A DNA stretch of 64,000 nt from Leucobacter coleopterorum (GTDB lineage Bacteria > Actinomycetota > Actinomycetes > Actinomycetales > Microbacteriaceae). The position numbers and the translations under genes were made by a program. Shown in pieces: positions 8,243 to 42,843 of this stretch. The notes beneath the pieces were generated by a model, which was not told the DNA's origin, did not search any database, and was given only the letters and a program-made list of their open reading frames with translations. The DNA lies in contig NZ_CP049933.1 of the NCBI RefSeq assembly GCF_011382985.1, positions 2,046,001-2,110,000 of the forward strand, given 5' to 3'. Each line of letters begins with the position of its first letter. Position 1 is the stretch's first letter.

Positions 8243-9106
8243 CTATCCGGCTCTGTGGCTCATATTTTCCGCCCCGGGTTGGGCATCTGCGGCGCGAACC
8301 GCGCGTACACGGCGCTGAGTAATAGCGACCACCGCCCACACGGCGGCAAGCGCAAGGAAAATGAGGACAGGGATCCAGTCCGGCACGCCGGCAGTTCCAC
8401 GCATCACCGCGGCTTCGAGTCTTGCCTGGTCCGTTGCTCCAAGCACCCCGGAAACCGAGGAGGTTCCCTGCGTGAGCAGCAGAATCGCCCCAACCGCGAC
8501 AGTGAGGGCACCGCCGACAACGTTCGTCCAAGCGTTGCGCCAGCGTCCAATGCGTAGCTCCCTGGGCCGCAAGAGCCGCTTCACCCCCGGCACACGGTTC
8601 CAGACGAGCGCGAGCAGCAGCAACGGCAGCGTCATGCCCGCTGCAAACACCAACAGAACGAGTCCACCGAAAAGCGCATTGCCCCCAAAGGCCGCGAACG
8701 TCAGTGCAGCACCCAGCAGCGGACCAGCACACACACCCGCAAGCCCATAGACCGTTCCGAGGGCAAACACCGAGGCGATTGATGCACTTTCGGCGCCTCG
8801 CTGCTTGACAAGGCCCGGAACACGTAGCCCGAGCAACAACACCAGCCCAAACAGCATCACCAGAACCGAAGCCACCGTAACCAATGCAAAGCGGTGTTGG
8901 TTCACCCATGCACCGAGCGAACCCGCGAGCAGACCCAGCGGAACAAGAGCAGTGGCGAGCCCCAGAAAAAAGACTCCCGTGCGCGCGAGCAACACCCCCG
9001 GACTGGTGAAAGCGTATGCGAAGAAGGCGGGCAGCAGCATCACAGAGCAGGGGCTGAGCAGCGTCAATACACCGCCCAGAAATGCACCAAGCAGACTCAG
9101 GCTCAC
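8243..9106 (-). CDS. ccdA: CcdA/DsbD-like thiol-disulfide membrane transporter
   Basis: CcdA passes electrons from cytoplasmic thioredoxin across the membrane to extracytoplasmic thiol proteins. The 287-residue protein has six or more hydrophobic helices and the two expected buried cysteines: Cys20 in [11 protein letters not shown] and Cys126 in [14 protein letters not shown]-terminal TM ([18 protein letters not shown]) and a basic tail follow. Its GTG start overlaps the stop of the thioredoxin-fold gene, so the two probably form a redox pair. It lies between hisC and hisB, not near cytochrome c genes, so a role in general extracytoplasmic disulfide chemistry is the better guess. Confidence 0.82.
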
Positions 9107-9878
9107 TGCGCCTCGGCAGACGCCTGCTTCAAAAACTTACGAAACTCCTCGATCGGCTGAGCGCCCGCGATTGCTTGCCCGTTCGAGGCAAACATGGGAA
9201 CACTCGAGACGCCGTACTGTTGGGCCTTCGCCGTACTCTCATTGACCGCCTGTTTCAAATCCTCGCGGTCCATGTCCTTGGTGAACTTGGCGATGTCGGG
9301 CACACCCGCGGTTTTGGCGAATTCGATGAGTTGCGCCGGCGGTAAGTCAGGGTGTCCTGATTCTGGGCCGCGTCGTACACGGCCTTGACGAACTGGAAAT
9401 AGCACCCCTGCTCCCCTGCGGCACGGGCTGCCACTGCCGCTCGCACCGATTCTTCTCCAAAGAAGGCGACATCATGCATTTCAATGCGAACCTTGCCGGT
9501 GTCAACAAACTCGGTGACGATCTGATCGAAGGTATCCCGAGAGTAGACAGCGCAGAAGGGGCAGCGGAAGTCGACCCACTCACTCATCACAACGGGCGCA
9601 TCAATATCACCAATCGCCATCGGGTCGTTCTCTACGCGACGCTCAAGGCCAACGGTTGCCGCAGAGTCTGTGTCGTTCTCGACACTTGCGCTATCGTCGC
9701 CGCTTTCAGCGGTGTTCGAAGTGTTCCCAGCGTTGTCGCTGTTGCCCTGCCCCAGTTGCACAAACCCGAACATAAGTGCGGCCACCGCAGCTACGCCCAA
9801 TACGACGTTCAGGATGCGGAAACGCCGTAACGACCGCTCAAGTTCATGGCGTGACAAAGCTTCTGGGGGTAAAGACAT
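9103..9878 (-). CDS. Membrane-anchored DsbA-like thioredoxin-fold protein (one-base frameshift near 9344)
   Basis: This is predicted to be an extracytoplasmic thiol-disulfide oxidoreductase. There is one N-terminal TM (about residues 22-40), an acidic Ser/Asp/Asn linker, and a DsbA-type thioredoxin fold with active site CPFC (Cys106, Cys109) in WVDFRCPFCAVYS. The frame breaks after AAQNQDTLT and resumes as LPPAQLIEFAKTAG, with the cis-proline loop at GVSSVPMFASNG. Adding one base at the AA of 9344-9345 (TT on the coding strand) gives a 258-residue protein. The break is probably a sequence error. Its stop overlaps the ccdA start. Confidence 0.8.
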
Positions 9879-9947
9879 ACCCTCAAGGGTAACGGCTCAG
9901 TTACAGGACCGCACCTTATGGGCAACACGTGAAGCAGAAGGGGGTAG

Positions 9948-11031
9948 CTACCTAGCGCCGCCTGGACCAAGATCGGCAAGGGCATTAATCAGCACAGTCG
10001 TTTCAGCCTCGGTGCCTGCGGTCATACGCAGGTGTCCCTCGATGTGTAGATTGCGGATCAAGATACCCCGGGTTCGCAGCGCCTCAAACGTCGCGTCCGG
10101 GTTATCGAACCCACCCACAAGCAAGAAGTTCGCGCCAGAGGGGTGCACCCTGTACCCCATTTCAACAAGGGCAACCTCAAGACGATCACGTTGCGTGCGA
10201 ATATCATCCACCGTCGCGAGCATCGTTGCGGAGTGTCGAATCGCTGCCGTTGCCGCCGCCTGCGTAAGAGCAGAGAGGTGATAGGGCAAGCGCACAAGAC
10301 GGAGCGCATCAACAACAGCCGAATCAGCTGCCAAATACCCCAAACGCACACCAGCAAACGCAAACGCCTTACTCATAGTGCGAGAGACGAGCAGCCTGGG
10401 CCGACCCGGCAGCAGGGAAACTGCACTCTCGCGTTCAGCGTCGAATTCCTGATAGGCCTCGTCAACGATGAGAATGCCGTCAAAAGCATCGTAGGCAGCG
10501 AGAATCACTTCAGGCTCAAGAGGGTGCCCGTCGGGTTATTCGGTCCACACAGAATCGCAATGTCCGGGCGGTACTCTTCGAGCGCGGCAACTACCCCCTC
10601 TGGAGTAAGCGCATAGTCAGCCGGACGCGCAACGGGAATCCAGGCCGTGTCCGTGCCCGATGCAAGCAGCGGGTACATCGAGTAGGTCGGCGTGAAACTC
10701 AGCAGCGAACGGCCAGGGCCACCAAATGCCTGCAAGATCTGCTGCAGCACCTCGTTAGAACCGTTTGCAGCCCAGAGATTGTCGCTCGTCAGCCCCGCCC
10801 GAGGTAACCCGCCAGCGACTCGCGCAGCTCCAGAAATTCACGATCCGGATATCGATTGACACTTCGAACCGCCGCTTCGAGTGACTGCACAATGTCTGCG
10901 ACCACGTCATCTGGGATCGGATGCGTGTTCTCGTTCACATTCAAGCTCACAGGAACCGGATCTTGCGGGGCTCCATAGGGCTCCAGGCCAACAAGATTGC
11001 TGCGAAGGGGAAGATCACTCAACTTGGTCAC
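9948..11031 (-). CDS. hisC: Histidinol-phosphate aminotransferase (two one-base frameshifts)
   Basis: This PLP enzyme converts imidazole-acetol phosphate to histidinol phosphate. Three pieces in shifting frames make one HisC: MTKLSDLPLRSNLVGLEPYG...AGYLGRG; then LTSDNLWAANGSNEVLQQIL...CGPNNPTGTLL; then EPEVILAAYDAFDGILIVDEAYQEF, the PLP lysine in SRTMSKAFAFAGVRLGY, and a normal C-terminus. Missing G residues at the CCCC of 10793-10796 and near 10517 account for both breaks. Repaired length is 361 residues, typical of the family. Because breaks like these occur across the window, I treat the gene as intact. Confidence 0.85.
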
Positions 11032-30779: not shown

Positions 30780-31371
30780 CCGTGCGCTCCTGGCACGCCC
30801 GTGCGCGAACAAAAGCGACGATGTAGTCGATGCCACTCGCGATGGTCAGCACAACGGCGATTGTCATCGTGATGATGTTGGCCCAGGTCGCGATGGGGGC
30901 CGCATCGCCCATGACGCTGGCGAGTGGCAGCAGCGCAAGCGTGATCGCGACTGACTGCGCGACCGTCTTCAACTTGCCCATCCAGGCTGCTGCGACGACC
31001 ACGTTGTGTGCGACCATCAAGCGGTGAACGGTGATCCCGATCTCTCTCACGAGCACAACGATGGTGATCCACCAGGGAAGCTCGTTGAGGATCGAGAGGC
31101 CCACGAGTGCGGCCCCGGTCAAGAACTTATCGGCGATGGGGTCGAGAAGTTTGCCGAGATCGGTAATGAGCCCACGGGAACGGGCGAGATGGCCATCCCA
31201 GGCATCTGTCGCGATCGCCAGCACAAAGAAAGCGGCGGCGGCCCAGCGCCAAGGGCCAAGCGCTCCCCCGTCTGCGAGCAGCATCCAGAGGAAAAACGGC
31301 GTAGCGACGATCCTCGCGCCGGTGATGATGTTCGGTGCGTTCCAGTTACTCACCCGAGCAGCCTCAGCCAT
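30772..31371 (-). CDS. pgsA: CDP-diacylglycerol--glycerol-3-phosphate 3-phosphatidyltransferase
   Basis: It makes phosphatidylglycerophosphate, the committed step to phosphatidylglycerol and cardiolipin. The 199-residue membrane enzyme carries the CDP-alcohol motif DG-x2-AR-x8-G-x3-D-x3-D in WDGHLARSRGLITDLGKLLDPIADK, with about five TM segments. Its ATG shares a base with the ftsK stop (TAATG), so translation is coupled to ftsK. Confidence 0.95.
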   Translation of the reverse strand: MAEAARVSNWNAPNIITGARIVATPFFLWMLLADGGALGPWRWAAAAFFVLAIATDAWDGHLARSRGLITDLGKLLDPIADKFLTGAALVGLSILNELPWWITIVVLVREIGITVHRLMVAHNVVVAAAWMGKLKTVAQSVAITLALLPLASVMGDAAPIATWANIITMTIAVVLTIASGIDYIVAFVRARACQERTDG

Positions 31372-34301
31372 TAGTCGCGACCCGTCAGCTGCCAGGCGTC
31401 TTCGTCGTCATCGCCGTCGTCGACCTCTTCGAGTGTGGCCTGGTACTTGGCGACGGGGTCGTCGTAGCGGTCGTCTCCGAAGCCGCTGTCGCTGAGTTCC
31501 TTGCCGCTCGCCCGGGCCTCTAGCGGATCCAGCACATCGGTCACGTTCTCGGCGCTCGCGAAGTCCTGTGGCTCGGCAGGAGGGGCCTGCGGAGTTGGCG
31601 TGACCGCCGGAGCCGCCGGGACAGCTGGAGCAGCTGGCGCAACGAAGACGGCTGCCTGCGGTGCCGATGCGGCAGAGGGCGCACCCTTGATCTTGCCGAG
31701 AACCTCTGCGAGCTGCTCAGGCGAGACGAGCACGTCTCGCGCTTTCGATCCTTCGGAGGGTCCCACGATGTCGCGGGACTCCATCAGATCCATGAGACGC
31801 CCGGCCTTTGCGAAGCCGACGCGCAGTTTGCGTTGCAGCATCGAGGTGGAGCCGAACTGCGAGGACACAACAAGCTCGATCGCGGCGAGCAGCACGTCGA
31901 GATCATCGCCGATGTCTTCGTCTATCTCCTTCTTCTCAGCGACCTGAGCAACGTCTGCTCGGTATTCGGGTTGCGCCTGAGCTTTGACGTGCGAGACCAC
32001 CTGGGCGATCTCGGACTCGTTAACCCAGGCACCCTGGACGCGCATCGGAGTGGATTCGCCGTTGAGTAGCATCAACCCGTCACCCTGACCGATCAGGCGT
32101 TCGGCACCAACCTCGTCGAGGATCACACGAGAGTCGGTGCCGGAGGCCACAGCAAAGGCGTAGCGGCTCGGCACGTTTGACTTGATGACGCCGGTCACAA
32201 CGTTGACGGACGGACGCTGGGTGGCCAGCACGAGGTGGATGCCTGCGGCACGAGCGAGCTGCGTGATGCGCTGAATCGAGTCTTCAACATCGCGCGGTGC
32301 CACCAGCATGAGGTCGGCGAGCTCATCGACGACCACAAGCAGGTACGGGTAGGGCTTCAGCACACGCTGGCTGCCCGCGGGCAACACAATCGACCCTGAG
32401 CGCACGGCGTCGTTGAAGTCGTCAATGTGGCGAAAGCCGAAACTCGCCAGATCGTCGTAGCGCATATCCATCTCTTTAACGACCCACTGGAGCGCTTCCG
32501 CTGCTTTCTTGGGGCTCGTGATGATGGGAGTAATGAGGTGCGGCACGCCCTGGTAGACCGTGAGTTCTACGCGCTTCGGGTCGACGAGCACCATTCGCAC
32601 CTCAGCGGGGGTCGCCCGCATCAGGATGCTCGTGATCATCGAGTTAATGAAGCTCGACTTACCAGAACCAGTGGCACCCGCCACGAGCAGGTGGGGCATC
32701 TTGGCGAGGTTCGCGACCACGAACCCACCCTTCACGTCTTTGCCGACACCAATAGTCATGGGGTGTTTGCTGCGCAGGGCACGGTTGGATCGCAGTACGT
32801 CGCCAAGTGCAACGTTCTCGCGATCTTTGTTCGGGATCTCAATGCCGATGGCACTCTTGCCCGGAATCGGCGAGAGAATGCGCACCTCGTTTGAGGCGAC
32901 AGCGTACGAGAGGTTCTTCGACAGTGCCGTGACCTTCTCAACCTTCACACCTGGGCCAAGCTCGACCTCGTACTGCGTGACCGTCGGGCCACGCGAGAAG
33001 CCGGTGACTCGAGCGTCAACCTTAAACTCTTCGAACACACGCGCCACCGCGGCCATAATGGTCGTGTTTGCCTCGGTTTGCACCTTCGGAACATCGCCGG
33101 ACGCAAGGGTCGACTGGTCGGGCAAGTGGTATTCCGCCTGAACCGGCGCGTGCGGCGGCGCGACAGCGAAGGGAGTCGTGGGGGCGGCGTCGACAACGGT
33201 GGGTTCGTCTTGCTCGGGCTCACCCCAGGAGTCATCGCTGAGGCCGGATGCGGGCGCCACTGCCGCGGCCTGCACCGCGGTCTCCGCTTGGTCGAGGTCG
33301 TCAAACAGGCCAGTAGGAAAGACTGATGTTTCTGGCTCGGCCTCAAGGGCCGAATCAAACGCACCATCGGCTGCCTTGTCGCTACCCTCCAGAAGTTCGT
33401 CGAGCACATTAGGGGCTTCAGAGTAGTCAGGGTCTTCCTCGCGGCCCGATGAGTTGCGGCGCCACCATGGCAGCGATCCGCTTTCGCCGTCGCCCTCGAC
33501 CTCTTCCAGATCGAAAAGTGCATCGTCTTTGCGGGACTTGCGCGCCTTCTTTGTGGGCTGCTGCACCGCCTCGGATTCTTGAGCCTCCGCAGCGGCATCG
33601 CTCACACCAAAGAGGAACGCATACGCCTCTCGCAGACGACGCACGATGCGACCGGGAGGTGTCTTTGTGACAATCAGCACAGAAAACAGCAGCAGCAGGA
33701 ACAGTACCGGTGCCGCAACCCAAATGGTCATCGTGAGCAGTGGTGTGCCGACCATCCAACCGAGCAGGCCGCCCGCCTCTGCGAGCGCGGGCATGCCAGC
33801 CTGCGGTTTTGGCTGCCCGCCATAAACGTGAGAGATACCTGCGATGCTAGTGATCACGAGGAAGAGTCCGATTGCGATGCGGCGGTTGTCATTCACGCTC
33901 GATGGATGGTTAAACAGCCACATCGCAAACCCAACCATGATGATCGGCAAGCCAAAGGCGACTCGACCAAACAGGCCGCCGAATGTCCAGGCATCGAGTT
34001 GCACCGCGATCGGCTGCCCGATCATGAACCACTCGACAATTGCACCGATAACGGCGAGCAGCACAAGCAGCATCGGAATGCCATCGCGGCGGTCTTCAGG
34101 TGCGAGCGGCTCGGTTCGGAAAGCGCGGGCTGCGCCTCCCACCGCGTGAGCGAGACCGTTCCAGGAGCGCACTAGCACACCCTCGGTGGGTTCAGCTTCT
34201 ACTAGCACCTTCGTTTTTGCGGTCGCCCGAGTACCCGAGCTGCGGGAACCCGGAGCTGCGGGCTTCCCCGATTTTCCGCGCGAAGAAGCTTTGGTTGCCA
34301 T
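31371..34301 (-). CDS. ftsK: DNA translocase FtsK/SpoIIIE with extended C-terminal tail
   Basis: FtsK moves chromosome ends through the closing septum. The 976-residue protein has a basic N-terminus, about four TM segments (roughly 75-225), a long acidic linker, and the alpha/beta motor with Walker A ATGSGKSS (about residue 544) and Walker [13 protein letters not shown]. The gamma winged-helix domain ([26 protein letters not shown]) follows. After it comes about 107 residues of Ala/Pro-rich then acidic sequence ([23 protein letters not shown]). Most FtsK proteins end soon after gamma, so this tail is unusual. Confidence 0.96.
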
Positions 34302-35039: not shown

Positions 35040-36064
35040 TCAACGACGCCGCAGGCCGCGCACGACCTTCTTCACGAGCGGGAGGCCCTCAGTCCAGACC
35101 GAATAGCCGGGGCCCGGGCGGTCCCACGAGCCCGCGAGCAGGTTCTCGTGCGAGGCCCAGCCCTTCTTGAACGTGGTCACGCCGTCGTTGATCAGACCAC
35201 CAAAGTCGTAGCGCTCGATCCCGAGCTTCTTCATCTCGCAGATCGCGTGCCACTTCAGTGCGTAGTTCGCGCGCAGGCGCTGGCCGGTCTCGTTCATGCC
35301 CCCGTAGAGCTCGAACGCGGTACGCGAGGACTTCGCCAGGAACAGGAACGCAACCGGCTTGCCATCGACATAGCTCGCCCACACAGGCGCGTCCTTTCCG
35401 AGCATCGAAAACGCGTCATGGTAGTAAGAATCCTCGTGCAGCCCGAAATCGGCGCGCTCGCTGGTCTCGCGATACACATCGAGGCACTCGTCGAGCTGCG
35501 CGGCGGTGGTGACGGCGCGGATCTCGAGGCTCTCCTCACGGCCAGACTTGCGCACGTACTGGCGGTGCTTCTTGCTCATGTCGCGAATCAGGTCGTCTTC
35601 AGACAGACGCAGGTCGAGGATCAGCGTGCGCGCGGGCAACACGGGCGTTTTTGTCTCACGCCAGCCGGATCCCAGCTCAAACTGGCCGGCATCCTCATCA
35701 GGCTCGATTGACACTGCGACGGCCTTACGCGAGCCACGCACATACTCGGCCACTGCGTCGGCGACCTCGGTGGGAGCTGGTGAAGCGGCGGGAAGATCAG
35801 GATCCTGGGCCGACCGCGCGAGCACCGGCCCGCGGGGCGCGTACACGAACCCCCAAGCGGCCCGGGCAACGCACGGGTCAGCAGCTGGCACGCACCCACG
35901 ACCGCACCGGAAGCATCAGTAACAAGCACACGCTCCGCGCTCCAGCGGTGAGCCGACTTCAGGTCACCCCATCCCCAGAGCTGCAGCGGATGCCCGCCAA
36001 GCTCTTTGACGGTCGAATCCCAAACGGCACGATCAGTGCACGGGCTTACGGTGAGGGAGCTCAA
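35040..36064 (-). CDS. FemABX-family aminoacyltransferase, first copy (one-base frameshift near 35852)
   Basis: FemX proteins add amino acids from aminoacyl-tRNA to lipid II, building the peptidoglycan cross-bridge. The N-terminal part starts at TTG 36064, inside the murJ stop and after GGAAGGAA, and reads SSLTVSPCTDRAVWDSTV. In the next frame the protein continues FVYAPRGPVLARSA, with the double GNAT fold (KHRQYVRKSGREE, ALKWHAICEMKKLGIERYDFGG). Adding one G at 35850-35854 gives 341 residues. The amino acid added cannot be predicted. Confidence 0.82.
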
Positions 36065-37677
36065 GAACGATTCCTTCCGAGTTTGCTGGACACGAAATTG
36101 GTGAGTTCAGCAAGTTCTGGTGATTTGAGTAGGCGAAGGCCAACTATGTAGACAATGGCAACCAAAGCAGCATCTACCGCCGCAAATACCAATGCAAGAA
36201 CGATTCCGTAATTAGGCAAAAGCTGCCCGATCAGTACGGTCAACAGGAGGCCCACCACAAGAGCGGGAATCGCCGCGATGACGTATCGAGAAAAGCTCGC
36301 AAGTATGCGTGTGGCGTCGATAAAACCGATTTTACGGCGCAACAGCACAACGGCCAGCACGGCCTGCAAAATAATGCTGAACCCAAAAACGACGCCGTAT
36401 GCAGGGCCGATCAGATCCTTTGGCAGCACCACCAAGCAGAGCGTTAGCGCAACAAGCAAAACGATCTGCACAGTCGTAAAAAAGAAAGGCGTGCGCGTGT
36501 CAGAGAGCGCGTAGAAAGAGCGTTGCACAACGAACAAGAAGCTGTACGCGGCAAGCCCCACCATGTAACACTGCAACACGATCGCAAACTGCTCGACAAG
36601 CTGCGGACTACTCCCGAGGCTAAACACGTAGCTAATAAAGGGTGCGGCAGAGAAAATGGCGACAGCAGCGAGCACCATGACAAGCGAAATCTGTCGGGCT
36701 GATGCGGAGAAGTCGGCACGGAACGCCGCAAGGCGACCGCTCTGGCCGGACTCGGCGAGTCTCGTAAAGTAGGCCGTACCCAATGAGACCGCAATCACCG
36801 AGTGCGGCAGCATGAAGATCAGCCAAGCATTTTGCATTGCAGCAGCAGACGCTCCATCACCCGTTGCAAGATTAATGACACGCTGGGTGATCAACCCACC
36901 AAGCTGCATAACGGTGATTGTCGCAAGGCTCCACCCTGCAATTTTCCCCGTGTGAGAAAGCCCGGTACCGCGCCATCTGAAGTCAGGCCGAAATCGAATG
37001 CCGACCCGGCGCCAGGAGGCAAAGAGCACGACGGCTTGCGCAATTACTCCGAGCGTCGCGCTGCCCGCAAGCACAGCGATCATGATCGGCGTCCAGTCCT
37101 CTGGAGTTCGGGTCCCGTCCCTATCCGACCCAAACATGATCACAAACACGACGATGCCCACTATGGCGACCACGTTATTCAATACCGGCGCCCAAGTAAA
37201 TGGACCAAAGACACTGCGCGCGTTCAGCACCTCACCGAGAACTGTATAGAGCCCATAGAAAACGATCTGTGGAAGACACCAGTACGCGAATGCAATAGCG
37301 AGGGCCCGCTGTGGGTCTCCCCAACCAGGTGTGAGTAACTCCATGATCCAAGGAGCCACCGCCATCACAATCGCAGTACCGGCGGCAAGCGCCACTAACA
37401 CCAGAGTGAGAATCTTATTGATGTAACCGGCACCACCGTCGGCACCTTTGGCCGCTTTCACGATTTGCGGCACCAGCACAGCGTTGATCATGCCGCCGGC
37501 CATGATCATATAAAGCGTATTGGGAAGCAAGTTTCCGTTTGCAAACGCATCCGCCGATTTCGACTCGACCATGCCGATCGCAAACACAAGAAGCATTGCC
37601 TTGGCAAACCCAAGCACCCGCGACACCATCGTTCCCGATGCCATCACCGCGCTTGAGCGCATCAAACTAGCTGCCAT
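36061..37677 (-). CDS. murJ: MurJ/MviN-family lipid II flippase
   Basis: It flips lipid II or a similar lipid-linked sugar across the membrane. The 538-residue protein has about 14 TM segments and MurJ features (SGTMVSRVLGFAKAML, NLLPNTLYMIMAGGMINAVLVPQIVKA, RSFYALSDTRTPF). It starts ATG 37677, sharing one base with the stop of the second femX, and overlaps the first femX at its end. Actinobacteria usually have a large MurJ near the origin, so this may be a second copy. Its composition looks slightly more AT-rich than its neighbours. Confidence 0.88.
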   Translation of the reverse strand: MAASLMRSSAVMASGTMVSRVLGFAKAMLLVFAIGMVESKSADAFANGNLLPNTLYMIMAGGMINAVLVPQIVKAAKGADGGAGYINKILTLVLVALAAGTAIVMAVAPWIMELLTPGWGDPQRALAIAFAYWCLPQIVFYGLYTVLGEVLNARSVFGPFTWAPVLNNVVAIVGIVVFVIMFGSDRDGTRTPEDWTPIMIAVLAGSATLGVIAQAVVLFASWRRVGIRFRPDFRWRGTGLSHTGKIAGWSLATITVMQLGGLITQRVINLATGDGASAAAMQNAWLIFMLPHSVIAVSLGTAYFTRLAESGQSGRLAAFRADFSASARQISLVMVLAAVAIFSAAPFISYVFSLGSSPQLVEQFAIVLQCYMVGLAAYSFLFVVQRSFYALSDTRTPFFFTTVQIVLLVALTLCLVVLPKDLIGPAYGVVFGFSIILQAVLAVVLLRRKIGFIDATRILASFSRYVIAAIPALVVGLLLTVLIGQLLPNYGIVLALVFAAVDAALVAIVYIVGLRLLKSPELAELTNFVSSKLGRNRS

Positions 37678-38783
37678 TAGTAGTAGGGATCCTTCCGCAC
37701 AGCGAGCGACCATCTTCTCATGAGTCGGTCGCCGAGCTTTACCCAGAAACTGTAGGCGCGACGATTGAGAGGCAGCTCAAAGGCGCCAACGTAGTCGGTA
37801 ATCTCGGGTGCGAAGGAGCGCTTAAACTGCCCCACACCGTGCAAGGGATGCGATTTGTCATCGGCACGATCGGCGGGCGGCGCACCACAAAAGTCGTGCA
37901 CAACTGCGCCGCGCTCGTTCGCCCAGCGAATCACTTCCCACTGCAGCGCGTGCGAGGCCCCGTAGGCGTTCTTCGCTCGCACCGAGGCGCCATCTTTGTA
38001 GGTGGTCTTCGCACCGAGCGCCATCGCAAACGCGCCCGCAACAAGCTCGGGTGAGCCGTCAGCACCGACAGCATGCGCAAAGAACATCTGCCCAGTGCCC
38101 TCGCGCTTAAAGGTCTGCCAAAACTCGCGGTAGTACTGCTCACTGCGCAGTACAAAGCGCCCCTCGGCGGTCTCGCGCAGCAGCTTATACAGCGCAGCAC
38201 AGTTCTCGTCGCTCGCCATGACGCGGGTCACCGCGATACCGTCGCGCCCCGCGCGATTGATTGCGTTGCGGGCCTTCTTGCCAAGACGGGCAAACACCTC
38301 GTCTTCGGTACCCGACACGTCCATCAGCACGGTCGAGGGGTTCGGGATCACGCGCACCGTCTCCACGTACCCGTCCTGCTGAATTGCAGCCGCAGCATCA
38401 AGCCCGAGCCGGGGCTCGATCTTCAACAGAAACGCACCGCATGATCTCGCAAACGAAGCCACCGCAGCAGAAACCTCAAGCACCGCGGCAGCGTCCTCAC
38501 CTGCGGGCCCAGCGGGCAGGTGCCACCACTCCCCCAGAAACGGCACCCGCTTCGCGAGCACCGAGACGGCAATCGCTGGGCGATCCGGCCGGGTCACCAC
38601 CAGCCGATACTGCCGATAGCGCCCTTCCTTCTGCTTGACGTCGAGGTAGCAGCTACCGCCCCAGACCTCGCCACCACCGGGATTGGCAGCGACAAGAGCA
38701 TCCCAATCGGCGTATTCCCGATCGGTTGCGAGACGCGCAGCGACCTCGCCGCCGCCCGCAGTACGCGCGACGACGCGAGACAC
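37677..38783 (-). CDS. FemABX-family aminoacyltransferase, second copy
   Basis: This is a second lipid II aminoacyltransferase candidate, 368 residues and unbroken. It has a two-GNAT layout with GEVWGGSCYLDVKQKEGRYRQY, ARLGKKARNAINRAGRDGIAV and the C-terminal GASHALQWEVIRWANERGAVVHDFCGAPP. It is clearly a paralogue of the protein at 35040-36064 and not a duplicate. The GTG start follows the RNase J stop by three bases. With murJ between the two copies, the group probably builds and exports bridged lipid II. Confidence 0.86.
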   Translation of the reverse strand: MSRVVARTAGGGEVAARLATDREYADWDALVAANPGGGEVWGGSCYLDVKQKEGRYRQYRLVVTRPDRPAIAVSVLAKRVPFLGEWWHLPAGPAGEDAAAVLEVSAAVASFARSCGAFLLKIEPRLGLDAAAAIQQDGYVETVRVIPNPSTVLMDVSGTEDEVFARLGKKARNAINRAGRDGIAVTRVMASDENCAALYKLLRETAEGRFVLRSEQYYREFWQTFKREGTGQMFFAHAVGADGSPELVAGAFAMALGAKTTYKDGASVRAKNAYGASHALQWEVIRWANERGAVVHDFCGAPPADRADDKSHPLHGVGQFKRSFAPEITDYVGAFELPLNRRAYSFWVKLGDRLMRRWSLAVRKDPYY

Positions 38784-38786
38784 GAG

Positions 38787-40463
38787 CTACACCACCACCA
38801 CGACTGGAACGATCATCGCCTTGCGACGCAGCTTCGTTCCGACCCAGCGACCGACTGTGCGACGCACGATCTGCTGCAGCTGATGGTGATCCTTCATACC
38901 CTCCTTCATGGCCTGCTGCAGCGCATCGGCGATCTGGGGCTTGATCGAGTCGAAGACGTGCTGGTCCTCAGCTACACCCTTGGCGTGAATCTCGGGGCCC
39001 GACACGATCTGCGCGAGGCTGGTCTCAACCACGGTGATCACCGAGATGAACCCTTCTTCCGCCAGCGTGCGGCGATCCCGCAGGTCATCGTCGGTCACTC
39101 GTCCGACGCTCTTACCGTCGACATAAATGAAGTCGATGTCGATCTGGCCGACCGCGCGCGCGACGCCGTTCGAGAGATCAACCACCGTGCCATTTTCGGC
39201 GATGACAGTGCGGTTCTGCGGCACACCCGTCTCAATCGCGAGTGCGGCGTTTGCCACGAGCATGCGGTATTCGCCGTGGATCGGCATCACGTTCTTCGGT
39301 TTCACGATGTTGTAGCAGTAGAGCAGTTCGCCCGCGGCGGCGTGACCCGAAACGTGCACCTTGGCATTGCCCTTGTGCACGACGTTGGCACCGAGCTTCA
39401 TCAGTCCATCGATAATGCGGTAAATCGAGGTCTCGTTACCGGGGATTGAGCTGGAGGCCAGAATGACCGTGTCACCCTCGCCGACCTCAACCTGGTGCTC
39501 CTGATTGACCATGCGACTGAGCACAGCCATAGGCTCACCCTGCGAACCGGTGGACATGTAGACGATGCGGTGATCCGGAATGTCACCGCTCTTCTTCAGG
39601 TCAACGATCACGCCGTCTGGCACGTTGAGGTAGCCAAGATCGGAAGCGATTTTCATGTTGCGCACCATCGAGCGGCCGAGCAGCACGACACGGCGGCCGT
39701 TGGCGTGCGCGGCGTCGAGCACCTGCTGCACGCGGTGCACGTGGCTCGAGAAGCTTGCGACCACAACCTTGCCGCGGGTCTTTGCGATGACCTGTTCGAT
39801 CACGGGTCCGATGTTCTTCTCGGAGGGCGTGAACCCGGGCACGTCAGCGTTGGTCGAGTCGGTCATGAAGAGGTCAACACCCTCTTCACCGAGGCGGGCG
39901 AACGCGCGCAGATCGGTGATGCGGCCGTCGAGCGGCAGCTGATCCATCTTGAAATCACCCGTGCCAATAACAAGGCCGGCCTCGGTGCGGATCGCAACCG
40001 CGAGCGCATCGGGAATCGAGTGATTGACCGCCACGAACTCAAGATCGAAGGGCCCGTAATTGACGCGGTCCCCTTCTGCGACCTCACGAGTCTTCGGGGT
40101 GATGCGGTGTTCCTTGAGCTTGGCCGAGATGAACGCCAGCGTCAGCTTGGAGCCGACCAACGGGATGTCTTCACGCTTCTTCAGCAGATAGGGGACGCCA
40201 CCAATGTGATCCTCGTGGCCGTGCGTCAGCACGATCGCGACGATGTCGCCGAGGCGATCCTCGATCTTGGTGATATCGGGCAGGATCAAATCCACACCCG
40301 GGTGCTGCACCTCTGGGAAGAGCACACCACAATCGACGATCAGCAGTTTGCCGTCGATTTCGTAAACGGTCATGTTTCGACCGACCTCACCGAGACCACC
40401 CAGCGGTGTGATGCGCAGGGTGCCTTTCTCGAGTGCGGGCGGAGCGTAAGGCGGATTGGGCAC
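38787..40463 (-). CDS. rnj: Ribonuclease J
   Basis: RNase J is a 5'-3' exonuclease and endonuclease for mRNA decay and rRNA maturation. The 558-residue protein has the metallo-beta-lactamase motif HGHEDH (81-86), TDSTNAD, the beta-CASP domain (VVASFSSHVHRVQQVLDAA) and HVSGHAAAGELL. The C-terminus ends PVVVVV. It follows dapA by 14 bases, the usual actinobacterial order. Confidence 0.95.
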   Translation of the reverse strand: MPNPPYAPPALEKGTLRITPLGGLGEVGRNMTVYEIDGKLLIVDCGVLFPEVQHPGVDLILPDITKIEDRLGDIVAIVLTHGHEDHIGGVPYLLKKREDIPLVGSKLTLAFISAKLKEHRITPKTREVAEGDRVNYGPFDLEFVAVNHSIPDALAVAIRTEAGLVIGTGDFKMDQLPLDGRITDLRAFARLGEEGVDLFMTDSTNADVPGFTPSEKNIGPVIEQVIAKTRGKVVVASFSSHVHRVQQVLDAAHANGRRVVLLGRSMVRNMKIASDLGYLNVPDGVIVDLKKSGDIPDHRIVYMSTGSQGEPMAVLSRMVNQEHQVEVGEGDTVILASSSIPGNETSIYRIIDGLMKLGANVVHKGNAKVHVSGHAAAGELLYCYNIVKPKNVMPIHGEYRMLVANAALAIETGVPQNRTVIAENGTVVDLSNGVARAVGQIDIDFIYVDGKSVGRVTDDDLRDRRTLAEEGFISVITVVETSLAQIVSGPEIHAKGVAEDQHVFDSIKPQIADALQQAMKEGMKDHHQLQQIVRRTVGRWVGTKLRRKAMIVPVVVVV

Positions 40464-40477
40464 TGGGCCTCCTGTTG

Positions 40478-41470
40478 TTAGCGAGTGGTGCCTGCGATTT
40501 TGGGCAGGGCACCGCCGGCAGCCGCGTTGCGGTCCGGCCTGAAGTTTGAAAGATCGATGCCGAGTACATCTGCGTTTGGCAGGCTGCTGACGAGCGACAA
40601 CTCATCTTCAATGAGAGCGGCTTCCCACTCTTCCGGTCCAACCAGCGGCAAACGCACACGCGGGCTGCCAATGCGCCCAAGGCCGTGCAAAATGTACTTC
40701 GCAGCAACCGTGCCGGGCACGTGCGTCATGACGGCGCGCACGAGCGGCTCGAGGCTCTGGTGAGCATCGCGTGCGGTATGCAGGTCGCCAGCGTTCACCG
40801 CGTCAACAATCACGCGGTACGGAGCCGCAGCGATATTCGCGGTAACGCCAATGAGTCCCGTCGCACCAATTGCGAGATGCGGCAGCACGTTGGCATCGTC
40901 ACCCGAGAAGTACATGAGGTCAGTCTGGTTCAGCACGCGGCTGACCTCACTGAAGTCACCCTTTGCATCTTTCACCGCGAGAATGTTCGGGTGTTTTGCG
41001 AGGCGCAAGATCGTTTCGTACTTGATCGGAACGCCTGTGCGACCCGGGATGTCGTACAGAATGACAGGCAAGTCGGTAGCGTCGGCCACCATGCGGAAGT
41101 GCGTGAGCAGACCGGCCTGGGTTGGCTTGTTGTAGTAGGGCGTGACGATCATGACACCGTCTGCCCCGGCCTTTTCACTGGCCTTGTAAAGCTCGATGGC
41201 GTGTGCGGTCTCGTTAGATCCGCCACCCGTAATCACCTTCGCGCGCCCACCGGACACCGACTTTGCGACCTCAACGAGCTTGATCTTCTCGGGGTCGGTG
41301 AGTGTGCTCGTCTCGCCGGTCGTGCCGGTCACGACGATGCCGTCGGCACCACTCACGATGCAGTTATCGATGTGCTGTTCAACAGCGACCCAGTCGACTT
41401 CGCCGTCCGCCTGGAACGGAGTAACGAGCGCAACGAGGACCTGTCCGAAGGGATTTTCTACGTTTGCCAC
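40478..41470 (-). CDS. dapA: 4-hydroxy-tetrahydrodipicolinate synthase
   Basis: It condenses pyruvate with aspartate semialdehyde, the first step to lysine and diaminopimelate. The 330-residue TIM-barrel aldolase has the TTGE motif (50-53), Tyr139 (ILYDIPGRTG) and the Schiff-base Lys167 (NILAVKDAKGDF). dapB lies four genes upstream and dapF about 20 kb away. It starts shortly after dfrA on the same strand. Confidence 0.96.
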   Translation of the reverse strand: MANVENPFGQVLVALVTPFQADGEVDWVAVEQHIDNCIVSGADGIVVTGTTGETSTLTDPEKIKLVEVAKSVSGGRAKVITGGGSNETAHAIELYKASEKAGADGVMIVTPYYNKPTQAGLLTHFRMVADATDLPVILYDIPGRTGVPIKYETILRLAKHPNILAVKDAKGDFSEVSRVLNQTDLMYFSGDDANVLPHLAIGATGLIGVTANIAAAPYRVIVDAVNAGDLHTARDAHQSLEPLVRAVMTHVPGTVAAKYILHGLGRIGSPRVRLPLVGPEEWEAALIEDELSLVSSLPNADVLGIDLSNFRPDRNAAAGGALPKIAGTTR

Positions 41471-41479
41471 CGTACTAGG

Positions 41480-42043
41480 CTACCGGACATTACTGCGCTC
41501 GCCGCCAGAACCCCGCCGATTGCCCGTGTGTGGATCAGGCGAAGATCGGTCGCGTACCCAGCGCTCGAAGCAATAGCCGAGCCCTGAAGCCGCTGTGAGC
41601 GGGGTTCCCGGATCCTGCAACCGCCAGGCCGGGTCACCCTCAAACTCGGGCGCAAACGTGTCGGCATCGGGCACGTCGAGCTCGATCCGCGTCACCACGA
41701 GTTCATCGGCAAGCGGCAGGGCCTCGCGGTAAAGCTGTCCCCCACCCATGATCCAGGCGTCTTCACTGGCGTAGTCAATCGCGGCGGCGAGGGAGGCCAC
41801 CACGGTCGCGCCCTCCGCCACGTAGTCGGGATCACGCGTCACCACAATGTTCACGCGCCCCGGCAGCGGCCGAAACCGCTCGGGCAGCGACTCCCAGGTG
41901 CGGCGCCCCATAATCACAGGGGCACCCAGCGTCACACGCTTGAAGTGAGCCAGGTCTTCGGGCAGGTGCCACGGCATCACGCCGTCTCGCCCGATTGCAC
42001 GGCCACGGGCTTCGGCCCAGATCATGCCGAGGCGATGCGTCAT
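41480..42043 (-). CDS. dfrA: Dihydrofolate reductase
   Basis: It regenerates tetrahydrofolate after thymidylate synthesis. The 187-residue protein has the DHFR features [45 protein letters not shown] and [19 protein letters not shown] 20-25-residue polar tail ([18 protein letters not shown]) goes beyond the fold. Its start overlaps the thyA stop, so the pair is coupled. Confidence 0.95.
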
Positions 42044-42843
42044 ACAGCCACCGGCGCCTTAATTCCGGGGTGGTGCTCGTAGCCAACAACTTCAAAATCG
42101 TCGAGAGTGTAATCGAAGATCGAGTCCGCCTTGCGAAGTTTAAGTTGCGGGTACGGGAAGGGATCCCGAGCCAGCTGCCGCTCAACCTGCTCGACGTGGT
42201 TGTCGTAGATGTGGCAGTCACCACCGGTCCACACGAATTCCCCCGGCTCAAGCCCGGTCTGCTGCGCGATCATAAGGGTGAGCAGCGCGTAGCTTGCGAT
42301 GTTGAAGGGCACACCGAGAAACATGTCGGCCGAGCGCTGGTACAACTGGCACGAGAGCTTGCCATCGGCAACGTAGAACTGGAAAAACGCGTGGCACGGC
42401 GCGAGCGCCATCTGGTCGAGTTCTGCAACGTTCCAGGCTGAAACAATCAGACGACGCGAATCCGGGTTCACCCGGATCTGCTCGACCACCTGCGAAATCT
42501 GGTCAATGCTCTCACCGTTAGGAGTTGGCCAGGATCGCCACTGTACCCCGTATACGGGCCCGAGGTCACCATCGGCGTTCGCCCACTCGTCCCAGATCGT
42601 CACGTCGTTCTCACGGAGAAATCCGACGTTGCCCTCGCCGCGCAAGAACCACAGTAGCTCAACCGCGACGGACTTAAAGTGTACGCGCTTTGTCGTGATC
42701 AGCGGGAAAGACTCGGCGAGATCAAAACGGATCTGTCGCCCAAACAGGCTACGGGTGCCGGTGCCGGTGCGGTCCGACTTTGGGGTGCCGGTCTCCAGCA
42801 CTTCGCGCAACAGGTTTTCATAGGGAGTCAGGATCGCAGTCAC
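42040..42843 (-). CDS. thyA: Thymidylate synthase
   Basis: It methylates dUMP to dTMP with methylene-THF, giving DHF for DfrA. The 267-residue protein has the catalytic Cys150 in [12 protein letters not shown], then [26 protein letters not shown] and the C-terminal PGIKAPVAV. It overlaps dfrA. A terminator lies between it and the APC permease gene upstream. Confidence 0.97.

What the first reader, a model, noticed from the sequence alone, without database searches (positions are those of the whole stretch)
35040..38783. FemX-MurJ-FemX module for bridged lipid II
Two different FemABX aminoacyltransferases flank a MurJ-type flippase with overlapping stops and starts. Building the cross-bridge and flipping the product by one co-translated set is a tidy idea. 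MurJ in actinobacteria is usually elsewhere, so this one may be specific for the modified lipid.
Basis: partly seen in the sequence, partly recalled or inferred. Interest (0 to 1): 0.55.

Follow-up and report, generated by a model that had tools for sequence, protein, structure and literature searches.

The report
Swappable lipid II flippase in operon
In Leucobacter bacteria the only recognised transporter that carries cell-wall building blocks across the membrane sits beside genes that probably decorate those blocks, and its gene has repeatedly been swapped between close relatives while its neighbours stayed the same.

Summary
The module is real: femX-murJ-femX, coupled by overlapping stops and starts, between rnj and ftsK in a Leucobacter genome. 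The second femX is split by a frame change; 10 of 44 mapped window genes are split against a close relative, so this is probably sequencing error. So it is the housekeeping flippase, moved beside femX. The surprise is exchange. In 5 of 15 sister pairs MurJ is 63-70% identical while RNase J is 98-99% and FtsK 88-95%. Between the window organism and its closest relative both FemX are 95-96% and MurJ 69%; DNA identity falls inside murJ and recovers at femXb. AU tests on MurJ reject all five pairs. Some species carry a different femX set, or a second MurJ lineage, in the same place. Exchange is well supported, most firmly in three pairs; its cause (phage or toxin pressure, or a neutral hotspot) and the residue FemX adds (perhaps threonine, reported in Leucobacter walls) are inferred.

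The parts
37677..38783 (-). femXa: FemABX-family transferase, 368 aa, GTG start 3 bases after the rnj stop
   Evidence: Pfam FemAB 92.1 bits; solved relatives by sequence are FemABX enzymes such as 6snr, 1lrz, 4ii9
36061..37677 (-). murJ: lipid II flippase, 538 aa from the ATG overlapping the femXa stop; the only MurJ found in the genome
   Evidence: TIGR01695 equivalog 253.1 bits, cut-off 235.55 (on the 550-aa ORF); AlphaFold2 model (mean pLDDT 80.3) matches solved MurJ, best hit TM 0.81
35040..36064 (-). femXb: second FemABX transferase; here in two frames (35040-35891 and 35621-36064), one 341-aa ORF in relative G051
36170..37560 (-). divergent core of murJ (approximate edges): DNA identity to G051 falls from about 90% to 51-75% here and is 84-96% in femXb
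38787..40463 (-). rnj (RNase J), conserved upstream neighbour
   Evidence: gene order
31371..34301 (-). ftsK, conserved downstream neighbour
   Evidence: gene order
40478..42843 (-). dapA (40478-41470), folA (41480-42043), thyA (42040-42843): conserved block upstream of the module

Best explanation
The three genes are the Leucobacter form of an operon rnj-femX-murJ-femX next to ftsK. Shown by sequence: MurJ is the only recognisable lipid II flippase of this genome, it does not lie at the origin site usual in the family, and its coding core has repeatedly been replaced by divergent alleles at a fixed chromosomal place (in one sister pair the femX genes differ too). Inferred: the FemX enzymes add one or more amino acids from aminoacyl-tRNA to the peptide of lipid II on the inner face. 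MurJ then flips all lipid II, decorated or not. Coupled translation keeps the branching enzymes and the flippase in step. Exchange, most simply by homologous recombination, is tolerated because any MurJ of the main lineage, and even a second MurJ lineage, can flip this lipid II; the alleles are kept diverse either by agents that attack MurJ or because the place is a recombination hotspot.
For: Only MurJ; Amj in 0 of 54. Own origin site without murJ. Place: 51 of 51 loci L063-L113 have murJ by trxB/pcnA, while MurJ lies with rnj in 45 of 46 Leucobacter loci read. Exchange: identity tables, sharp edges in DNA identity, fourfold-site difference 60% in murJ against 26-31% in thyA, dapA, rnj and both femX and 45% in ftsK for G000/G051, trees, 15 of 26 strong MurJ splits conflict with the locus reference against 0-5 for seven other genes, AU rejection of five sister pairs with G009+G010 accepted, MurJ second lowest of 46 and lowest of 37 neighbourhood genes for G000/G051 and G003/G004. 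Different femX set: G006/G022. Second MurJ lineage in place: G011, G039, G047, G048.
Against: Background recombination is high: in a 23-taxon test RNase J conflicts with the dcw reference as often as MurJ (6 of 11 each; FtsK 4 of 15), MraY conflicts with the locus reference in 3 of 6 strong splits (MurJ 6 of 11) and has the same normalised RF as MurJ, 0.70. In the Leifsonia-like control with murJ at the origin a milder version occurs: two pairs have TrxB 98-99% and MurJ 75-78%. For G003/G004 the fourfold-site difference of murJ (39%) is not above its flanks (30-47%), so there exchange rests on topology. G005/G050 and G019/G020 have other neighbourhood genes as divergent as MurJ, MurD of G005/G050 is 77%, and G019+G020 has only 45% bootstrap support in the flank tree. 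FemX products were not tested; group B is not the wall type in which FemX enzymes are usually studied (recalled). Other genera have FemX with MurJ at the origin, so linkage is not needed for FemX function.
Confidence: 0.75

Rival explanations
1. One reading: an extra MurJ dedicated to FemX-modified lipid II, beside a housekeeping murJ.
For: Tight coupling with two femX genes; six of 54 Leucobacter do have two full-length MurJ.
Against: Only one MurJ found in this genome and no Amj. In the six genomes with two, the extra copy (L043, L045, L047, L049, L051, L053) has no FemX profile hit in its stretch of 15.7-20 kb.
Confidence: 0.06
2. murJ is not exchanged but evolves very fast in some lineages (positive selection without transfer).
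For: For G003/G004 silent-site divergence in murJ is not above the flanks.
Against: G004 MurJ is closer to G030 and G018 (71.5, 69.4%) than G003 MurJ is (59.1, 57.5%), and G003 MurJ is 96.5% identical to G017: acceleration in G004 would not bring it closer to others. Edges of the divergent stretch are sharp; AU tests reject sisterhood.
Confidence: 0.05
3. Exchange is neutral: the rnj-ftsK interval is a recombination or insertion hotspot and murJ merely lies in it.
For: Wadjet jetB/jetC genes lie downstream of femXb in four genomes (G001, G015, G032, G053); module types vary; background incongruence of other genes.
Against: In the closest pairs (G000/G051, G003/G004) murJ is divergent, but not femXa, femXb or M23, rnj or ftsK on either side.
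Confidence: 0.4
4. The FemX proteins do not touch lipid II but use another acceptor, so the grouping with murJ reflects only co-regulation of envelope genes.
For: Neither FemX reaches the NCBIfam FemX equivalog cut-off (42 and 22.1 bits against 500); the acetyltransferase-type PF13480 also matches; an M23 peptidase stands where femXb would be in several relatives, and four Leucobacter loci (G036, G037, G040, G042) have no FemX hit.
Against: Solved relatives by sequence are FemABX enzymes, the best named lipid II:glycine glycyltransferase; Leucobacter walls contain threonine, an extra amino acid that a FemX could add (PMC4804768, PMC4511665, passages read).
Confidence: 0.2

Closest known systems
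MurJ lipid II flippase (TIGR01695, PF03023; solved MurJ structures such as 7wax, 6cc4)
   Same: Equivalog score above cut-off, full-length fold match, TM 0.81 to 7wax
   Different: Genomic place (between femX genes, not at the origin) and repeated allele exchange between close species
FemABX aminoacyl transferases (6snr lipid II:glycine glycyltransferase, 1lrz, 4ii9 FemX)
   Same: Pfam FemAB above cut-off for both; FemXa matches solved FemABX by sequence
   Different: Far below the FemX equivalog cut-off; in a genus with cross-link type B, diaminobutyrate walls (passages of two papers)
MurJ as target of phage single-gene lysis proteins (PMC10229422; PDB 9ukv, 9nu4, 9nu5, 9nu8)
   Same: Gives a known kind of pressure on MurJ (abstract read; entry titles)
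   Different: The abstract deals with phages of E. coli and Pseudomonas; no such agent was sought or found here for Leucobacter
Capsule and O-antigen loci, where the Wzx flippase varies with the glycan operon (recalled)
   Same: A MOP-family flippase exchanged as part of a cell-envelope cassette at a fixed site
   Different: Here the flippase is the lipid II one and can differ alone, with its neighbouring FemX genes left in place

Membership tests
MurJ | curated family score (TIGR01695, PF03023) | tested here: met
   253.1 bits against 235.55; 233.9 against 27.4
MurJ | MOP-type fold closest to MurJ rather than MATE or Wzx | tested here: met
   ranks 1-15 in Foldseek PDB are MurJ, MATE from rank 16; model pLDDT 80.3
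MurJ | lipid II flipping in vivo | not testable with these tools
   inferred from being the only candidate found in the genome
MurJ (second lineage, L043, L058, L059) | TIGR01695 cut-off | tested here: not met
   207.7, 209.6 and 222.4 bits against 235.55; PF03023 cut-off is met; only strong MurJ of G011, G039, G047, G048
FemABX | Pfam FemAB domain over cut-off | tested here: met
   92.1 and 67.2 bits, cut-off 24
FemX equivalog (NF047883, UDP-MurNAc-pentapeptide-lysine alanyltransferase) | curated score 500 | tested here: not met
   42 and 22.1 bits; intact femXb homologue of G051 35.1 bits
FemABX | aminoacyl-tRNA-dependent transfer to a peptidoglycan precursor | not testable with these tools
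   no assay; residue added is unknown
Amj alternate flippase | PF10997 | tested here: not met
   0 of 54 Leucobacter genomes; control rings in B. subtilis

The most novel reading that the evidence does not exclude
The lipid II flippase of Leucobacter is a diversifying, horizontally traded target: phage lysis proteins or antibacterial peptides that bind MurJ select for rare alleles, and the bacteria escape by swapping the murJ core (or the whole femX-murJ-femX cassette, or a second MurJ lineage) at a fixed place that also collects a defence system. An essential housekeeping transporter would then behave like a serotype or receptor gene.
Probability: 0.3. Interest if true: 0.85.

Novelty: new variant of a known kind. 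Interest (0 to 1): 0.6.

Why it matters
MurJ is essential in model bacteria (recalled) and is a target of phage lysis proteins. A genus in which close relatives carry 63-70% identical MurJ alleles in otherwise near-identical surroundings offers natural allele swaps: each can be tested for what MurJ variation does (substrate, inhibitor or phage escape). It also ties FemX, found in 10 of 60 family genomes, to the sole flippase in a genus with a threonine-containing type B wall; the paper searches listed none whose title or abstract start deals with the enzymes that build it.

Tried and rejected
Second MurJ at the origin: looked for and not found. Second genome hit as MurJ: rejected, it is a MatE protein. 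Amj: absent. Real pseudogene of femXb: less likely than sequencing error, because 10 of 44 mapped genes of the window are split against G051 and only 3 of 48 the other way; not settled. Extracytoplasmic arms-race signature: outer halves of MurJ vary more than inner halves in Leucobacter (ratio 1.48), but the ratio is higher in the origin-located MurJ of a Leifsonia-like genus (1.89), so this gives no support. Phage or plasmid carriers of this MurJ: only distant hits under 60% identity, 5 phage and 53 plasmid records. A Microbacterium control failed because the genus of G092 held one genome. Split conflicts against the dcw genes do not single out MurJ. Papers: five searches with MurJ terms and one with Leucobacter plus MurJ (0 papers) listed none whose title or abstract start describes murJ allele exchange; most papers of subscription journals are not held.
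Full report
What is there. On the minus strand the window holds rnj (38787-40463), femXa (37677-38783), murJ (36061-37677), femXb (35040-36064) and, after 738 bases, ftsK (31371-34301). femXa follows rnj by 3 bases, the femXa stop and the murJ ATG share one base, and the murJ stop shares two bases with a TTG start of femXb. One correction: the ORF at 35040-35891 is only the C-terminal part of femXb; the N-terminal part is in another frame (35621-36064). In the close relative G051 the same gene is one 341-aa ORF. Ten of 44 mapped genes of this window are split in this way against G051, against 3 of 48 in the reverse test, and the genome's completeness is given as 89.6%, so I read the break as sequencing error rather than a dead gene. 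A third FemX gene elsewhere in the genome (617179-618215) is also in two pieces.

Which organism. The genus group of the window (54 genomes) contains contigs of the same lengths as contigs of Leucobacter sp. OLIS6 (741206) and Leucobacter edaphi (718127), so the window is from Leucobacter, family Microbacteriaceae.

Is it the only MurJ? In the own genome Pfam MurJ finds this gene (233.5 bits) and a 38-bit partial match, which is a MatE protein (167 bits). Of 54 Leucobacter genomes, 53 have a match; six (G003, G008, G017, G018, G029, G030) have two full-length strong matches, and two fragmented assemblies (G043, G046) have two partial ones. Amj is found in 0 of 54. In 51 of 51 non-Leucobacter loci (L063-L113: 11 named ones, and 40 genomes of 39 genera taken) murJ lies by trxB and/or pcnA, the origin cluster. 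I also read four genomes chosen because they have two MurJ: three (G069, G071, G136) have one copy there, and G103 has neither copy there; in G099 the only MurJ lies beside rnj (below). The own origin cluster has thioredoxin, a thioredoxin-reductase-type protein and a poly(A)-polymerase-head protein (pcnA), but no MurJ profile hit. I read the MurJ context in 46 of 54 Leucobacter genomes: rnj is in the same locus in 45 of 46 (not in the stretch read for G047, where ftsK and femX are present).

How old is the linkage? A profile of 11 Leucobacter FemX finds members in only 10 of 60 family genomes, 9 of 59 genera. In G071 and G076 a FemX lies just after rnj while a MurJ is at the origin. In G099, another genus, FemX-MurJ-FemX lie in a row on one strand beside rnj, and this is its only MurJ match; I saw positions only. 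So femX beside rnj is found more widely than murJ in that place, which suggests that murJ joined femX (inference).

Module types. Between rnj and ftsK Leucobacter shows: femXa-murJ-femXb (window type, 26 genomes pass the score filters); femXa-murJ-M23 peptidase (G003, G004, G012, G017, G018, G030); femX-murJ with a second femX facing it (G006, G007, G008, G029); femXa followed by a reversed set of murJ and two femX (G011, G039, G048; similar in G047); murJ with M23 or alone and no FemX hit (G036, G037, G040, G042). The MurJ of G011, G039, G047 and G048 belongs to a second lineage, grouped (0.996) with the extra copies of the six two-MurJ genomes and with a MurJ lying between rnj and ftsK in another genus (G103), apart from the main Leucobacter clade (42 genomes, support 1.0) (FastTree, midpoint root; one origin-labelled row, L146, bears that label only from a 30% TrxB hit, and L073 was dropped as too short). 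Three second-lineage MurJ tested miss the TIGR01695 cut-off (207.7-222.4 against 235.55 bits), yet in G011, G039, G047 and G048 they are the only strong MurJ.

Exchange of murJ. The flank tree (RNase J, DapA, FtsK; 43 genomes) has 15 sister pairs, compared. In five (G000/G051, G003/G004, G006/G022, G005/G050, G019/G020) MurJ is 63-70% identical while RNase J is 98-99% and FtsK 88-95%; in six (G009/G010, G028/G044, G007/G008, G036/G037, G039/G048, G018/G030) MurJ is 88-97%; four (G014/G026, G016/G024, G040/G042, G027/G052) have MurJ 81, 67, 77 and 61% with more divergent flanks and are left undecided. For the window organism and G051 the FemX are 95-96%, MraY 98%, MurF 93%, MurD 91%, MurJ 69%. 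DNA identity falls from about 90% to 51-75% within murJ and is 84-96% in femXb, and fourfold sites differ by 60% in murJ against 26-31% in thyA, dapA, rnj and both femX and 45% in ftsK. MurJ is second lowest of 46 reciprocal best hits (median 95.7%; the lower one is a 109-residue match of a small ORF) and, for G003/G004, the lowest of 37 (median 95.2%). In the MurJ tree G003 joins G017 while G004 joins G018 and G030; in the flank tree G003 joins G004. AU tests on MurJ reject all five sister pairs (p from 1e-75 to 0.0024) and accept G009+G010. Of 26 strongly supported MurJ splits 15 conflict with the locus reference; for the others: ThyA 0 of 10, DapA 0 of 8, RNase J 3 of 16, FemXa 5 of 18, FemXb 2 of 10, M23 0 of 5, FtsK 3 of 26. 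Origin-placed MurJ in a Leifsonia-like genus (28 genomes) shows 2 of 11. In G006/G022 the femX genes differ in type as well, between conserved rnj (98%) and ftsK (92%).

Results against. Leucobacter genes recombine generally: on 23 genomes RNase J conflicts with dcw genes in 6 of 11 splits, as often as MurJ, FtsK in 4 of 15; MraY conflicts with the locus reference in 3 of 6 and has the same RF distance as MurJ (0.70). The Leifsonia-like control is not clean either: two pairs have TrxB 98-99% and MurJ 75-78%. What singles out Leucobacter MurJ is the depth of the difference in close pairs, not the mere presence of conflict. For G003/G004 silent sites in murJ are not more different than in the flanks, so there the case rests on topology. 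For G005/G050 and G019/G020 other nearby genes are equally divergent, and G019+G020 is weakly supported (45) in the flank tree. The firm cases are G000/G051, G003/G004 and G006/G022.

Function. Both FemX score as FemAB and FemXa finds solved FemABX enzymes, but both are far from the FemX equivalog. Leucobacter walls are described as cross-link type B with diaminobutyrate; threonine is listed in 5 of 6 taxa of a table in PMC4804768 (passages read) and in L. chironomi (PMC4511665, passages read). A FemX that adds threonine to lipid II before MurJ flips it would fit, but no call tests it, and I could not match wall composition to module type. MurJ is bound by phage lysis proteins (PMC10229422, abstract read; PDB entries 9ukv, 9nu4, 9nu5, 9nu8 by title), which makes an arms race conceivable; the pattern of variable sites neither supports nor excludes it. 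Because MurJ differs while its FemX neighbours do not, close tuning of MurJ to one FemX product is unlikely.

Verdict. An ordinary-looking tidy operon turns out to hold the sole recognised lipid II flippase of its genome, away from its family's usual place, and traded between species as an allele. The exchange is well supported; the selective reason and the FemX product are open.

Noticed in passing
L054:13420-17495; also L132, L145, L120, L061: Wadjet jetB and jetC genes lie downstream of femXb, before ftsK where it was read, in four Leucobacter genomes (G001, G032/OLIS6, G053, G015; the stretch of G015 ends before ftsK).
   Followed up: partly
L043, L045, L047 (murJ near 9100-10900), L049 (3635-5476): Extra second-lineage murJ in four Leucobacter within one conserved cluster; in L043 its neighbours are a cytosine/purine-type permease, a carbon-nitrogen hydrolase, a sodium:solute symporter and an arginase-family protein. 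No FemX profile hit there.
   Followed up: partly
G000:C1:617179-618215 (outside the window): A third FemX gene of the own genome, again split into two frames.
   Followed up: no
window 2415-62971, ten genes: Ten of 44 mapped genes are split into two or three frames against G051, so this assembly probably carries many indel errors; the given completeness of 89.6% fits.
   Followed up: yes
L152 (G103): A non-Leucobacter genus with a reversed second-lineage murJ between rnj and ftsK, but no FemX match in the genome at E 1e-20.
   Followed up: partly
L042:7734-9158 and homologues: M23 peptidase with a long N-terminal region beside murJ in the place where the window has femXb.
   Followed up: partly
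L157/L165 and L163/L165: In the Leifsonia-like control genus two pairs have TrxB 98-99% but MurJ only 75-78%, a milder hint of the same behaviour at the origin site.
   Followed up: no
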